A stretch of 64,000 nucleotides of DNA from Cellulomonas edaphi. Lineage in GTDB: Bacteria > Actinomycetota > Actinomycetes > Actinomycetales > Cellulomonadaceae. Made by a program: the position numbers and the translations under genes. The first letter of the stretch is position 1; the number at the start of each line of letters is the position of its first letter. Below the pieces are notes generated by a model, which was given only the letters and a program-made list of their open reading frames with translations, was not told the origin of the DNA and ran no database searches. Of the stretch, positions 45,498-53,796 are shown piece after piece. The stretch spans positions 1,054,001-1,118,000 of the forward strand of contig NZ_JAUCGR010000002.1 of assembly GCF_030362815.1 (NCBI RefSeq), read 5' to 3'.

Positions 45498-46310
45498 TCA
45501 GAGGTCGTACTCGACCACCAGCGGCGCGTGGTCCGAGAATCGCTCGGCATACGTCGCCGCACGGTCCACGGTGGCGCTCACCGCGGCGTCGGCGAGCTCC
45601 GGCGTCGCGAGCTGGTAGTCGATGCGCCAGCCCGAGTCGTTGTCGTAGGCGGCGCCGCGCCACGACCACCACGTGAACGGGCCGGGGCCGTCACCGCCCA
45701 GCTCACGACCCATGTCCCGCCAGCCCAGGTCGTCGAACCACCGGTCCAGGTAGGCCCGCTCCCGCGGCAGGAACCCCGCGGACTTGAGGTTGCCCTTCCA
45801 GTTCTTGATGTCGACCTCGCGGTGCGCGATGTTCAGGTCGCCCGCGACGACGGCGCAGCCGCCACCCTCGGCGATGTCCGCCAGCCGCGCGGTCACGTGA
45901 TCGAGGAAGGCGTACTTCTCGTCCATGGACGGCTGCCCCACGGTGCCGGAGTGGATGTAGGTCGAGACCACCGTGACCCGGCGCGCCGGGGCGCCCTCGT
46001 GCGGCGCGACCTCCAGGTCCGCCTCGACCCACCGGCCGGTGTCGCCCGTGACCCCGGTCCGCATCCCGATCCGCACGGCGCTCATGGGCAGGCGCGACGC
46101 GATCGCGACGCCCGCGCGGCCCTTGGTCTCGCTGGCCTCGTGTGCCAGGTGCCACCCGTCGGCAGCGAGGTGGTCGGCGAGGATCTCGTCGGACGCTCGC
46201 ACCTCCTGCAGCAGCAGCACGTCGGGCTTGCGCTGCTCGAGCCAGGTGTCCATCCCCCGGCGGAAGGCGGCACGGATGCCGTTGACGTTGACGGTGGCGA
46301 TCGTGAGCAC
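45498..46310 (-). CDS. xth: exodeoxyribonuclease III (AP endonuclease)
   Basis: This 270-residue protein of the exonuclease III family has TVNVNGIRAAF near the start, LLLQEVRASD with the metal-binding Glu, GDLNIAH with the Asp/Asn pair, and the C-terminal SDHAPLVVEYD with the catalytic His. It cleaves DNA at abasic sites and degrades 3' ends in base-excision repair. The GTG at 46310 gives the normal family start VLTIATVNVNG; two more GTG codons lie 2 and 6 codons upstream. The first codons lie within a 52-bp sequence that recurs at 49477-49528, so the gene borders an inserted segment. Confidence 0.92.
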   Translation of the reverse strand: MLTIATVNVNGIRAAFRRGMDTWLEQRKPDVLLLQEVRASDEILADHLAADGWHLAHEASETKGRAGVAIASRLPMSAVRIGMRTGVTGDTGRWVEADLEVAPHEGAPARRVTVVSTYIHSGTVGQPSMDEKYAFLDHVTARLADIAEGGGCAVVAGDLNIAHREVDIKNWKGNLKSAGFLPRERAYLDRWFDDLGWRDMGRELGGDGPGPFTWWSWRGAAYDNDSGWRIDYQLATPELADAAVSATVDRAATYAERFSDHAPLVVEYDL

Positions 46311-46339
46311 CTGCACATCCAACCCCACGCCGGTGACAC
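46288..46339. repeat. left copy of 52-bp direct repeat (insert boundary)
   Basis: This 52-bp sequence covers the start of xth and its upstream region. It recurs in the same orientation at 49477-49528 with only three mismatches (relative positions 8, 11 and 30). The last 22 bases are identical in both. Weaker similarity continues for about 30 bp beyond. Confidence 0.85.
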
Positions 46340-46379: not shown

Positions 46380-47393
46380 CTAATTGTCGGGCTCGATGCG
46401 AACCCGGCTCTCGACACCCTCATCGGCGGTCTGCGGGAGCGCCTCGGGGTCGAGCCCGTTCATGTCGATAGTGACCCGGGCTTGAGGGTGTGGTGTCTTC
46501 CCGACGTCGATGGAACCGAGGTAGCCCAGGGGCGAGGTGAGCGTGGCATTGGCGTCCATGAGCCAGAACTCGAGGCTGCCGACGTCGCCGACGTACCCCC
46601 CGAGGGTGACCCCGTCGCGGAGCATGCTGCTGGGGGCGCAGTCGTTCCAGCCCTCGGCGATGTGGGTGCAGATTGACGTGGTGTCGTCCAGCGCGTCGCC
46701 GTCCGTCGAGCTCAGGTGGAGTGTGGCCACGCGCAGGCTCTCCAAGAGCTCCTGGGGCGCGGTCTCGGGATTCAGGATCACCGGTTGATCCGTCGGGCTT
46801 CCCTCGGGCACATCCGGGTCGAGCAGCGCCTGCGCTCGCTGCGGGGTGCCGTGCACCACCTCGAGCATCTTGGCGCGCGCGCCCGTGCCGAACAGGGAGT
46901 GCACAGGGCGGTAGAACATCTGGTCGCCGCAGTCGCCTGGGAAGAAGAGGTCGTCCGCCGTGACGACAACGGCGGTCCCGACGTTCTCGAACTCGTACGC
47001 AACGAGCGGCTCGATGCCGAGCCAGACGTCCGCCTTGTTGCCCAACCCCCAACGGACTCCCTCGAGTGCGGACTCGCCGAGCAGCGCCGTGCGGTCTTTG
47101 CCGTCGGCGTCGGTGTAGGCGACCTCGAGGAGGGCCGACCCGGGGTGGTCGTCGGACCGCTCGGTGCCCCTGATCGCGACCACCTGACGCCACGGCGTAA
47201 GTCCCGCGAGATAGCTTCCCGCAGGTTCGATGTCGCCAAGTGACGTCGCACATCCCCCGTACTGCTTGCTCAGCACCGCGCCCTGGCCGGCGCCAGCCGC
47301 CTCGCTGGGGGCGAGCGTTGCGCACCCTGCGGCGACCTGCACGATGGCGGCGAGCGCCCCTGCCCCCACCGCAAGCCTCGAGATCCGATTCAC
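46380..47393 (-). CDS. predicted lipoprotein of unknown function
   Basis: This 337-residue protein starts with a lipoprotein signal (hydrophobic stretch LAVGAGALAAIVQ and lipobox VAAGC, lipidated Cys at residue 24). The mature part is a beta-rich globular domain with five further cysteines, mostly paired in sequence (YGGCATS, PGDCGDQ, SICTHI, NDCAPS). I recognise no family. The GTG at 47393 has GAGGAG ahead of it. The gene lies inside the 3.1-kb insert bounded by the 52-bp repeats, is less GC-rich than its neighbours and faces the same way as the secreted peptidase upstream. Surface attachment is well supported; its role is not. Confidence 0.75.
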   Translation of the reverse strand: MNRISRLAVGAGALAAIVQVAAGCATLAPSEAAGAGQGAVLSKQYGGCATSLGDIEPAGSYLAGLTPWRQVVAIRGTERSDDHPGSALLEVAYTDADGKDRTALLGESALEGVRWGLGNKADVWLGIEPLVAYEFENVGTAVVVTADDLFFPGDCGDQMFYRPVHSLFGTGARAKMLEVVHGTPQRAQALLDPDVPEGSPTDQPVILNPETAPQELLESLRVATLHLSSTDGDALDDTTSICTHIAEGWNDCAPSSMLRDGVTLGGYVGDVGSLEFWLMDANATLTSPLGYLGSIDVGKTPHPQARVTIDMNGLDPEALPQTADEGVESRVRIEPDN

Positions 47394-47600: not shown

Positions 47601-48539
47601 TTAAATGCTGCAGGCCGAGGGATATTCGGGCTGGCATTCTTCACCTGATCCCGTGAACAGCGCTCTGCGATAGAGACCGGCCTGCGCGTGTGTGACCAGA
47701 CCGCCGCTTGGACCGCGCGCGTTCATCCTCGCCCGATACTGTCCATCGCCGGCAGTTCCAGTCCAGATCCTGATGGTTTGGTAGATGTACGAGTTATCTG
47801 CCGTTGACGTAGGGTCAAAACGCGCGCCACCCTCGCCGTGAGCGACGTACGCGTTCTGATACGAGATGGTGCCGAACGTGGAACCCCAGTAGCGGACCCC
47901 CTGCTCGAAGCCGTAATTGGCGTGCAACTGCCGAAAACCCGGGGACGAGTGCAGGTACTGCAGGTACGCATTTGCATCCTGATCGAGCAAGCTGTCGGTG
48001 CGGAAGTCAGCGCGTGAAACACAACTTGACATCGTGGCCGGATTATCTCCGTTCTTCGAGTCATTGCGACCGCCGTGGTACGCCCCGGTCAAGTGCATCA
48101 TCTCGTGACGGCCGGTTTGCCAGATCACCTTGGCAGACCGGTCCCCAATGTCGATATGGAGATAGGGCGAGAGCGAGCAACTCGCGCGGCCGATGGTGCT
48201 TCCTCCCAACTCGACGAGCCTGACCTTCACGTCGCTGACGCCCGGGTCCGCCACCTCAGTTAGCGCCAGGGGCTGCGTGCCGTCGAAGTCGCGCGCTCCT
48301 TCCAACGATGCCATCGCTGCTGGGAACGCCGTCTTCTCGCTAGCTGTCCAGTCCTCGTAGTCATTCGAGAAACCCCACGTGATGGTGTTGTCATCACACC
48401 CATCGCTCGAGCCCGCATTCGTGAACGCGAACGCCGGGGAAGCGGAACTGACCAAGAAAAACACGGTGGCAGCGAACGCGGCTACCAACTTCCTACGCGC
48501 ATTCCAATCGAGAGGAACGAGGCCAGGTGGGTTGTGCAT
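47601..48539 (-). CDS. secreted metzincin-like metallopeptidase
   Basis: This 312-residue protein has a clear signal peptide (ARRKLVAAFAATVFFLVSSA, cleavage after SPAFA). The zinc site HEMMHLTGAYH is a complete HExxHxxGxxH, and NPATMSSCV some 15 residues later is a candidate Met-turn, so it should be an active secreted metzincin. The last 110 residues are beta-rich (GFEQGVRYWGSTFGTISYQN and on), resembling a small carbohydrate-binding or jelly-roll module. The ATG at 48539 is preceded by GGAG. It lies in the insert next to the xth gene, with visibly lower GC than the flanks. Substrate unknown; I find no close named family. Confidence 0.8.
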   Translation of the reverse strand: MHNPPGLVPLDWNARRKLVAAFAATVFFLVSSASPAFAFTNAGSSDGCDDNTITWGFSNDYEDWTASEKTAFPAAMASLEGARDFDGTQPLALTEVADPGVSDVKVRLVELGGSTIGRASCSLSPYLHIDIGDRSAKVIWQTGRHEMMHLTGAYHGGRNDSKNGDNPATMSSCVSRADFRTDSLLDQDANAYLQYLHSSPGFRQLHANYGFEQGVRYWGSTFGTISYQNAYVAHGEGGARFDPTSTADNSYIYQTIRIWTGTAGDGQYRARMNARGPSGGLVTHAQAGLYRRALFTGSGEECQPEYPSACSI

Positions 48540-49044
48540 CAACACTCCATCCGGGACGGCGTTCGCGAACTGTGCCAGTTACCGTGGGACGCCGTCTATG
48601 GGAAAGGCATCGTGTCGCCCGAAGGGGGGTCTCGAATCGCGTCTATGCACTGGCTCGGGCCGTTAGTCGTCGAGGAGCCGATCCGGCCCGGCCCGTCGTG
48701 ACAGGCAGCCCGGCGCCACGCACCACGAAGCGCGCCCCACCTGCTAAGCGGGTGAGCACTCTGTGGTGTTGCCGCCTCAGGCCAGGGAGTGAGAGTTCGA
48801 TGACATGGTGGGGCCCTTCCCCACTTCCGCGGCGACGCGGTCGCGCGCCGTTCGAGCATCCAGTCTCGCTCCTCGTACTCCACCCCAAGCGCCTGAGCGG
48901 CTAGCCGACTTTGGATCTGGTCGACTTCGACACGTCACGCCGGAGGAGGTGGCCGAGATCTACCCGGGCGTCACGACTGAGGGCGCCGACAGTGCGCGTG
49001 CGTTTACCGAGCGGATCGCGGCGATCGGCGCAGCGTAACCCTGA
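48540..49044. other. non-coding stretch inside the insert
   Basis: This 505-bp stretch has no convincing gene. Short frames exist on both strands but none has a good ribosome-binding site together with sensible composition. A plus-strand segment at about 48930-49038 (reading VTPEEVAEIYPGVTTEGADS) looks protein-like and may be the front part of the broken frame that follows. Confidence 0.5.
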
Positions 49045-49443
49045 AAGTGCTTCGCCGACGGGAACCTGCCACCCTTCCTCGTCAACCCGCTCCGGCGCCT
49101 GCACCGCCAGCACCGGTTTCGGCCAGCAGCCGAGTGCGGCACTCGGGGCCTCGGAAACATCGAACTGATCGAATATGTTGCACGGTTCGACTTTGACTCG
49201 GTCGTCACCCTCGACTGGCAGCGGCTGGAGAACGCGGACGAATTCGCAGCTCTGAAGGGCGAGCGGCTGAATTGGCTCGGAATGCCGGCTATCAAGGCCA
49301 ATGGGAGACACCACCTAGAGCTGCAGACTGCTGTCGCGGTGTCCGCCGTCGGCCACGTCATCGACCAGTGGGGCCGGCGACGTTCCGTCTCACCCAGCTC
49401 GAGCTCGACGATGGGAAACGTGAGCAGTCGCACGGCGCCGTAG
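49045..49443 (+). pseudogene. truncated reading frame, probably a gene remnant
   Basis: An open frame of 133 codons runs from just after a TGA at 49042 to a TAG at 49441. Codon use is native-looking, with segments such as IELIEYVARFDFDSVVTLDW and GERLNWLGMPAIKANGRHH. It has no upstream start codon, and the preceding protein-like stretch is in another phase, ending in TAA at 49036. This fits a frameshifted or 5'-truncated gene. No family is recognised. It ends 33 bp before the right copy of the 52-bp repeat. Confidence 0.4.
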
Positions 49444-49476
49444 TCCGTGCTCTGGCGCGAGTGCGACTTGGGCACC

Positions 49477-49528
49477 TTGACGGGGGTGATCGTGAGCACC
49501 TGCAGATCCAACCCCACGCCGGTGACAC
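49477..49528. repeat. right copy of 52-bp direct repeat (insert boundary)
   Basis: This is the same sequence as 46288-46339 with three mismatches. On the minus strand it encodes a false start of exonuclease III (VLTITPV) that loses similarity after about eight codons. Confidence 0.85.
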
Positions 49529-52752: not shown

Positions 52753-52902
52753 CAGTAGCAAGACCGCGACGCCGGAACACCTCACATCACGACGAGCGCG
52801 GACGAAGGGCAGGCGGACCGGCCACCTGACCTGCGTGGGTGTCCGGATGCCGCAATGGTCGCTACTGTCGGCGCCATCAGCCGACGATCGAGGAGGACCT
52901 CG

Positions 52903-53796
52903 GTGACCCACCGCGCCCGCACGGCGGTCTCCACGCTCGTCGTCGCCGCGCTCGCCTGCGTCGGCCTGGTGCTCGCACCGGCCGCCTCCGCCGCGACCGC
53001 GCCGTTCGTCAGCGTGATCACGCCGCAGTACGCGCTGTCCACCGCCACCGTCCGGTTCAGCGGGAAGGTGTATCCCGCGCGGGGGCAGAAGGTCACCGTG
53101 CAGCGCAAGGACGGCTCGCGGTGGGTGACGATCGACACCGCCAGGGTCTCGACGTCCACCGCGAAGTTCTCGGTCGCGTACAGGGTCAAGCCCGGCAAGA
53201 AGGCGTTCCGGCTCCTCGTCGCCAAGACCTCGCAGTCCACGTGGGCGAAGCAGAGCTGGACCACCTGGACCACGGACGGCGTGAAGTACAAGTCGTACAT
53301 CGCGCGCGCCCGGTCGTACATGAAGTCGTACTGCCCCCGGACGCCGATCTTCGTGAGCACCCCGTTGGTGAACTCGCGGACCGTCGGCATGGCCACGGAG
53401 AAGTACACGTGGACCTCCTCCAGCAGCTCGGGCCCGCGGACGTACACGTGGCAGCACCAGATCCACATCGAGGGCGGGCTGTCCAGGCCCTTGCTGCGGC
53501 ACGTCGCGCTGCACGAGTGCGCCCACGTGGTGCAGTTCCGCCGCCTGGTGAAGGGACCCACCGCACGTGCGGCGGCCGAGAAGACGACGGCCAAGGTATT
53601 CAAGCGCAGGAGCGGTGAGTACGGCGACGGCAACGAGCGCCAGGCGGACTGCATGGCGATCGTCATCACGCACAAGAAGCAGTACGGCGGCTACACGCAG
53701 TCCTGCACGGGCGCGCGCGCCACGTCGGCCAAGGCGCTGTGGCGGGCGTACGGCAAGAAGTACCAGTCGTCGGTCTACACGTTCACGCGTCGCTGA
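52903..53796 (+). CDS. secreted HExxH-containing protein
   Basis: This 297-residue protein starts with a signal peptide (AVSTLVVAALACVGLVLAPA, cleavage after ASA). An Ig-like beta domain follows (ATVRFSGKVYPARGQKVTVQ), then a C-terminal domain with HVALHECAHVVQ. A later ERQADC segment gives a glutamate that may be the third zinc ligand, as in gluzincins (HExxH plus ExxAD). It is probably an extracellular zinc protein, perhaps a peptidase. The GTG at 52903 is preceded by AGGAGG. It is divergent from the glyA riboswitch. No close family is recognised. Confidence 0.8.
   Translation: MTHRARTAVSTLVVAALACVGLVLAPAASAATAPFVSVITPQYALSTATVRFSGKVYPARGQKVTVQRKDGSRWVTIDTARVSTSTAKFSVAYRVKPGKKAFRLLVAKTSQSTWAKQSWTTWTTDGVKYKSYIARARSYMKSYCPRTPIFVSTPLVNSRTVGMATEKYTWTSSSSSGPRTYTWQHQIHIEGGLSRPLLRHVALHECAHVVQFRRLVKGPTARAAAEKTTAKVFKRRSGEYGDGNERQADCMAIVITHKKQYGGYTQSCTGARATSAKALWRAYGKKYQSSVYTFTRR

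What the first reader, a model, noticed from the sequence alone, without database searches (positions are those of the whole stretch)
47601..48539. Unclassified secreted metzincin carried by the insert
The protein has a signal peptide, a complete HExxHxxGxxH zinc site, a candidate Met-turn and a beta-rich C-terminal module, yet I cannot place it in a named family. Located beside a cysteine-rich lipoprotein on probable mobile DNA, it could be a secreted toxin-like or niche-specific protease with a surface partner.
Basis: partly seen in the sequence, partly recalled or inferred. Interest (0 to 1): 0.6.

Follow-up and report, generated by a model that had tools for sequence, protein, structure and literature searches.

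The report
Bacterial matrixin protease with lipoprotein partner
A small lineage-specific DNA insert carries a secreted zinc protease, distantly related to animal matrix metalloproteinases, and right behind it the gene for a membrane-tethered partner; the same two-gene set recurs in distant actinobacteria, where one partner is predicted to fold like the animal inhibitors of these proteases, although in this genome the end of the protease gene looks broken by frameshifts.

Summary
The protein is not unclassifiable: it belongs to a divergent matrixin-like (Pfam M10) family spread thinly over Actinomycetota. It scores 151 bits against a profile of 15 relatives built without it, and the family profile hits MMPs in the PDB (1.3e-6).

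The partner guess also holds. In all 22 homologous loci (17 genomes) the protease gene is followed closely, often with overlapping codons, by a gene for a lipoprotein or other membrane-anchored exported protein. The window lipoprotein is a member, and the two families diverge in parallel. A model of one family lipoprotein (pLDDT 75) matches NTR/TIMP domains, the fold of animal MMP inhibitors. This resembles the Listeria Mtz-Tim pair.

Limits: the TIMP-like domain is not shown for the window's own lipoprotein. The window protease ORF probably ends early through frameshifts; the catalytic domain is whole, but the end of the C-terminal module lies out of frame. The insert sits at the exonuclease III gene start between 55-nt direct repeats, with an empty site in relatives and no recognisable integrase. 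Most likely function: a secreted protease held in check by its tethered partner. Toxin activity is unsupported.

The parts
47601..48539 (-). Secreted matrixin-like metalloprotease, ORF as assembled (312 aa)
   Evidence: 151 bits against family profile built without it
48426..48539 (-). Signal peptide, residues 1-38
   Evidence: Sequence: RRK, hydrophobic stretch, SASPAFA; no prediction program was run
48075..48107 (-). Zinc site HEMMHLTGAYH, residues 145-155
   Evidence: invariant His/Glu in 16 sequences
48021..48032 (-). Met-turn MSSC, residues 170-173
   Evidence: MSTC/MATC in most homologues
47604..47921 (-). In-frame part of the C-terminal beta module (HANYGFEQGVRYWG...)
   Evidence: Aligned with homologues, conserved N, F, E, W and C302
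47390..47640 (-). Out-of-frame remainder of the C-terminal module in the two other frames, ending in a TGA that overlaps the lipoprotein start
   Evidence: homologue length and stop-start overlap. Individual scores weak
46380..47393 (-). Lipoprotein partner (337 aa, GTG start)
   Evidence: E 2.4e-11 against profile of partners in four other loci
47322..47333 (-). Lipobox AAGC of the partner, lipidated Cys24
   Evidence: Sequence
46285..46339 (-). Direct repeat, copy at the start of the intact xthA
   Evidence: 93% identical to the other copy
49474..49528 (-). Direct repeat, copy upstream of the insert (truncated xthA start)
   Evidence: joins the native upstream sequence in relatives
45498..46328 (-). 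Exonuclease III type gene (xthA), insertion target
   Evidence: Pfam Exo_endo_phos E 1.6e-27; empty site in relatives

Best explanation
A two-gene module: a secreted matrixin-like metalloprotease made without a recognisable pro-domain, and a closely coupled gene for a membrane-anchored lipoprotein dedicated to it. Most likely the lipoprotein is the cognate regulator, an inhibitor (possibly also a substrate) that caps or holds the protease at the producing cell's surface, as TIMPs cap MMPs. Shown: family, gene pair, anchor, parallel divergence, and a predicted NTR/TIMP-like domain in one family lipoprotein. Inferred: binding, inhibition, control at the surface, and that the window's own lipoprotein has an NTR-like domain. 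In this genome the pair was gained on an insert at the xthA start and the protease's C-terminal module has probably been broken by frameshifts, so the local copy may be decaying or reduced to its catalytic domain.
For: Homology of the protease; matrixin profile matches; partner directly downstream in 22/22 loci, gap -38 to +31 nt, lipobox in 17 by pattern versus 5 of 76 control ORFs; window lipoprotein in the partner family; similarity matrices of the two proteins correlate, r 0.80, 0 of 5000 permutations; modelled partner L083 matches NTR/TIMP domains; precedents Mtz-Tim (PMC8235301) and karilysin-potempin (PMC7296668).
Against: NTR-like domain not detected in the window lipoprotein's N-terminal half (hhalign E 0.1). 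TM-scores of the NTR matches are modest. Some partners have an anchor without a lipobox. In Listeria the partner is cleaved by the protease rather than shown to inhibit it. Shared ancestry alone could give part of the parallel divergence. A lipoprotein-like homologue exists without a protease nearby in one genome.
Confidence: 0.55

Rival explanations
1. The lipoprotein is mainly the substrate: the protease clips it off the membrane and the released domain acts on the cell wall or on neighbouring cells, as proposed for Listeria Tim.
For: Same architecture as Mtz-Tim, where active Mtz is needed for a specific Tim cleavage (PMC8235301); variable, probably flexible linker after the lipid anchor in several partners.
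Against: No cleavage site conserved across the actinobacterial partners is visible; substrates rarely need the inhibitor fold.
Confidence: 0.2
2. The lipoprotein is a folding or secretion helper (or surface docking site) for the protease rather than an inhibitor.
For: Coupled expression, membrane anchor and co-divergence fit; the protease has no pro-domain that could act as an internal chaperone.
Against: Best structural matches are NTR/TIMP domains, not known foldases.
Confidence: 0.12
3. An interbacterial toxin-immunity pair: the protease attacks neighbours' surface proteins and the lipoprotein protects the producer.
For: Patchy distribution, an acquired insert and a self-side tethered partner; Mtz-Tim sensitises neighbouring cells to lysis (PMC8235301).
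Against: No delivery system, target or toxicity evidence; protease-inhibitor pairs also serve nutrition.
Confidence: 0.08
4. The window copy is simply a dead gene pair on an old insert and tells nothing beyond decay.
For: Probable frameshifts in the protease, no other copy in 82 genomes of the genus.
Against: The catalytic domain is intact with all conserved residues; the lipoprotein frame is open with GC3 about 0.9, typical of a coding gene; shifts could be assembly errors.
Confidence: 0.35

Closest known systems
Listeria Mtz-Tim pair (metzincin plus TIMP-like lipoprotein; PMC8235301)
   Same: Secreted HExxHxxGxxH/D metzincin with Met-turn, immediately followed by a lipoprotein gene with a TIMP-like region; associated with mobile DNA; described from Firmicutes
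   Different: Actinobacterial, no sequence match sought successfully; usually an extra C-terminal beta module on the protease and a second domain on the partner; no cI-cro switch here; the paper's text does not mention Actinobacteria
Tannerella forsythia karilysin and potempins (KLIKK proteases; PMC7296668, PMC4404884)
   Same: Bacterial matrixin (karilysin is in the profile hits) with an adjacent specific lipoprotein inhibitor
   Different: Potempin genes lie upstream and are small; KLIKK C-terminal domain absent here
Animal matrix metalloproteinases and TIMPs
   Same: Catalytic-domain profile match beyond the zinc site; NTR/TIMP-like fold of one family partner
   Different: No recognised pro-domain cysteine switch or hemopexin domain; partner membrane-anchored and encoded next to the protease
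Pseudomonas alkaline protease and its inhibitor AprI (cited in PMC8235301)
   Same: Metzincin with an endogenous inhibitor
   Different: Serralysin family, inhibitor not TIMP-like

Membership tests
Metzincins (clan MA(M)) | HExxHxxGxxH/D zinc site | tested here: met
   HEMMHLTGAYH, invariant in the family
Metzincins (clan MA(M)) | Met-turn downstream of the zinc site | tested here: met
   MSSC at 170-173, Met170 conserved in at least 90%
Metzincins (clan MA(M)) | Metzincin fold | tested here: inconclusive
   Single-sequence model failed, pLDDT 32
Matrixins (M10A-like, Pfam PF00413) | Profile score above Pfam gathering cut-off | tested here: inconclusive
   Window protein: no hit; homologue P0003 24.2 vs 24 bits; 15 of 16 members hit at E<0.1
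Matrixins (M10A-like, Pfam PF00413) | Family profile closest to matrixins among solved structures | tested here: met
   Stromelysin-3 1.3e-6, other MMPs, karilysin 1.6e-4
Matrixins (M10A-like, Pfam PF00413) | Structural zinc and calcium sites | not tested
   Needs a good structure
Mtz-Tim gene pair | Lipoprotein gene immediately downstream of the metzincin | tested here: met
   22 of 22 loci have a coupled anchored exported protein; 17 lipobox by pattern
Mtz-Tim gene pair | TIMP-like fold of the partner | tested here: inconclusive
   Met for the modelled relative L083; not shown for the window lipoprotein
Mtz-Tim gene pair | Protease cleaves the partner | not testable with these tools
   Needs experiment
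Mtz-Tim gene pair | Sequence homology to Listeria Mtz/Tim | not tested
   Listeria sequences not obtained; phage A118 carries no such pair after its lysin
KLIKK protease/potempin | C-terminal KLIKK domain and upstream inhibitor gene | tested here: not met
   Different C-terminus in homologues, partner downstream
Snapalysin (M7) | HExxHxxGxxD with Asp as third ligand | tested here: not met
   Third ligand is His155
Integrative mobile element | Flanking direct repeats and empty site in relatives | tested here: met
   55-nt repeats; L011, L013 contiguous
Integrative mobile element | Own integrase or transposase | tested here: not met
   No such gene recognised between the repeats

The most novel reading that the evidence does not exclude
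Actinomycetota carry a widespread, partly mobile bacterial counterpart of the MMP-TIMP pair: a secreted matrixin and its own membrane-tethered NTR-fold inhibitor encoded together, an independent or ancestral case of matrixin control by an NTR domain, used as a protease with built-in self-protection.
Probability: 0.35. Interest if true: 0.8.

Novelty: new variant of a known kind. Interest (0 to 1): 0.58.

Why it matters
Control of matrix metalloproteinases by TIMPs is usually seen as an animal trait; the one bacterial TIMP-like parallel I found in the literature (Listeria Mtz-Tim) rested on a Phyre2 prediction. A separate, co-diverging matrixin/NTR-lipoprotein gene-pair family in Actinomycetota would suggest that the pairing is a general bacterial device and offers small, testable protein pairs for asking how NTR domains came to regulate matrixins. 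It also names a gene pair that Pfam hardly sees: no lipoprotein reaches significance, and one protease homologue only just passes its cut-off.

Tried and rejected
The window protein on its own found nothing in Pfam, NCBIfam, PHROGs, PDB sequences, phages, plasmids, viral contigs or genome contigs; its order gave only chance hits. The way in was a weak hit in another family of the class, used as a stepping stone. A first lipoprotein hit without a protease nearby (L006/L040) suggested no co-occurrence; later loci overturned this. AF2 of the window protease alone was useless. Sequence searches of the lipoproteins in Pfam and PDB found nothing. The viral structure library gave no match at E <= 0.001. 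The out-of-frame C-terminal pieces score only weakly by profile, so the frameshift claim rests on homologue length, order of the pieces and the conserved stop-start overlap. Snapalysin and KLIKK proteases were considered and rejected. One caveat of my own making: in the lipoprotein alignments the L089 entry is the copy upstream of its protease, not the downstream one.

Full report
What is there. The ORF lies on the minus strand, ATG 48539 to TAA 47601, 312 aa. It has a signal peptide (residues 1-38), HEMMHLTGAYH (145-155), an MSSC Met-turn (170-173) and a beta-type segment starting HANYGFEQGVRYWG. Its own sequence found no relative in the family libraries, the PDB, phages, plasmids, viral contigs or genome contigs; in its genus it is alone among 82 genomes.

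Relatives. A weak hit in another family of the class (G416, 33%, E 2.4e-8) gave a full-length homologue. That found G870 in the phylum, which in turn found 8 of 148 genomes of G870's class and, as a profile, 20 of 119 genomes of the order of G1189 (the weakest of these, confined to the zinc-site region, may be other metzincins). Against a profile of 15 relatives that excludes it, the window protein scores 151 bits, E 2.4e-45. In the 16-member alignment the zinc His residues, the catalytic Glu, D160, D188, N208, F211, E212, W218 and C302 are invariant. The window copy has Met where nearly all others have Gly (HExGH).

Family. Peptidase_M10 (matrixin) is hit by 15 of 16 members at E<0.1, best 1.2e-6, and one member just passes the curated cut-off (24.2 vs 24 bits). 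The family profile finds human stromelysin-3 at 1.3e-6, other MMPs, and bacterial karilysin at 1.6e-4; the MMP matches extend past the zinc site into the LSQDD..AIQ region after the Met-turn. I place it as a divergent matrixin-like family with a signal peptide, no recognisable pro-domain and usually a C-terminal beta module. A direct fold test of the protease failed (single-sequence model, pLDDT 32).

Truncation. Full-length homologues run about 60-100 residues further, and their stop overlaps or nearly touches the next gene. In the window the stop at 47601 is followed by 207 nt before the lipoprotein start, but the expected pieces occur out of frame: TAWTALVTPAVTIPVG in one frame, then GDNPVYFDDARGELL in the other, whose TGA overlaps the lipoprotein GTG by 4 nt (47393-47390), as in G416 and G870. 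Each piece scores weakly alone. The catalytic domain is unaffected.

Partner. In every homologous locus where the downstream gene could be read (22 loci, 17 genomes) the protease is followed on the same strand, at -38 to +31 nt, by a gene for an exported anchored protein. Seventeen have a lipobox by pattern; the others have an N-terminal hydrophobic segment or, in L085, a lipobox-like LYAC that the pattern missed. With the same loose pattern, control ORFs show this for 5 of 76. The window lipoprotein scores 34 bits (E 2.4e-11 in a set of 23) against a profile of the partners in G416, G870, G1189 and G1325 that excludes it. Protease and lipoprotein similarity matrices correlate, r 0.80, with none of 5000 permutations as high; shared vertical history may contribute. 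The window protease and the window lipoprotein have the same two nearest neighbours, those of G870 and G1189.

Partner fold. The lipoprotein of G1292 (L083), modelled with 11 relatives, reached pLDDT 74.8, pTM 0.54: five strands followed by helices, then a second alpha/beta part. Foldseek's best PDB matches are nearly all NTR/TIMP-superfamily proteins: complement C3/C4/C5, PCOLCE NTR (4.2e-4), agrin NtA (1.1e-3, its entry title says 'structurally related to N-TIMP-1'), meteorin NTR (2.5e-3), TIMP-1 (4.7e-3), N-TIMP-3 (2.8e-2). TM-scores are modest. For the window lipoprotein this domain is not demonstrated: its group aligns with the modelled group only over the C-terminal part (hhalign E 2e-5), and the N-terminal halves give E 0.1.

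Mechanism. The Listeria Mtz-Tim pair has the same architecture: secreted metzincin, downstream lipoprotein with a TIMP-like region, mobile DNA; there Mtz clips Tim and the two together sensitise cells to lysis (PMC8235301). Tannerella karilysin and its siblings have adjacent lipoprotein inhibitors, the potempins, encoded upstream (PMC7296668). I commit to a tethered cognate inhibitor or regulator of a secreted matrixin without pro-domain, 0.55. Binding and inhibition are inferred, not shown.

Insert. The module sits between 55-nt direct repeats (93% identical) that copy the start region of xthA. Two relatives have the empty arrangement, the 3-dmu-9_3-mt family gene followed directly by xthA (L011, L013). 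GC drops to 0.64. Between the repeats I found no integrase, only unassigned remnants. Relatives carry GTGTCGGTGGC[GA]TG[GA]GG..GGATG at this place, which from my own knowledge resembles the actinobacterial DNA-damage (PafBC-type) promoter; this was not tested.

Noticed in passing
window 46285-46339 and 49474-49528: The duplicated repeat contains what looks, from own knowledge, like a PafBC-type DNA-damage promoter of xthA; both copies share GTGTCACCGG where relatives have GTGTCGGTGG, so the duplication probably arose from this lineage's own site.
   Followed up: partly
window 48793-49443 (+): Plus-strand stretches between the repeat and the protease (for example ELIEYVARFDFDSVVTLDWQRLENADEFAALKGERLNWLGMPAIKANGRHHLELQTAVAVSAVGHVIDQ) look like the remains of another gene; only a sub-threshold PIN-like hit (E 0.06).
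   Followed up: partly
window 52855-53796 (+): A second exported-looking protein with an HExxH motif (LHECAHVVQF), sub-threshold DUF6782 putative metallopeptidase (E 0.004).
   Followed up: no
L089 (G1313:C54): The protease is flanked on both sides by two similar lipoprotein genes.
   Followed up: no
L074, L075/L102, L091: Short versions of the module: proteases of 240-270 codons open frame, essentially catalytic domain only, each followed by a lipoprotein of about 250 residues.
   Followed up: partly
window lipoprotein 46383-47393 and P0006, L068, L085: Window-type partners share a Cys some 13-47 residues after the lipid-anchor Cys and a later Cys (GDC/LPC/SDC/GGC), plus a conserved C...GW..C pair near the C-terminal domain; possible disulfides.
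   Followed up: no
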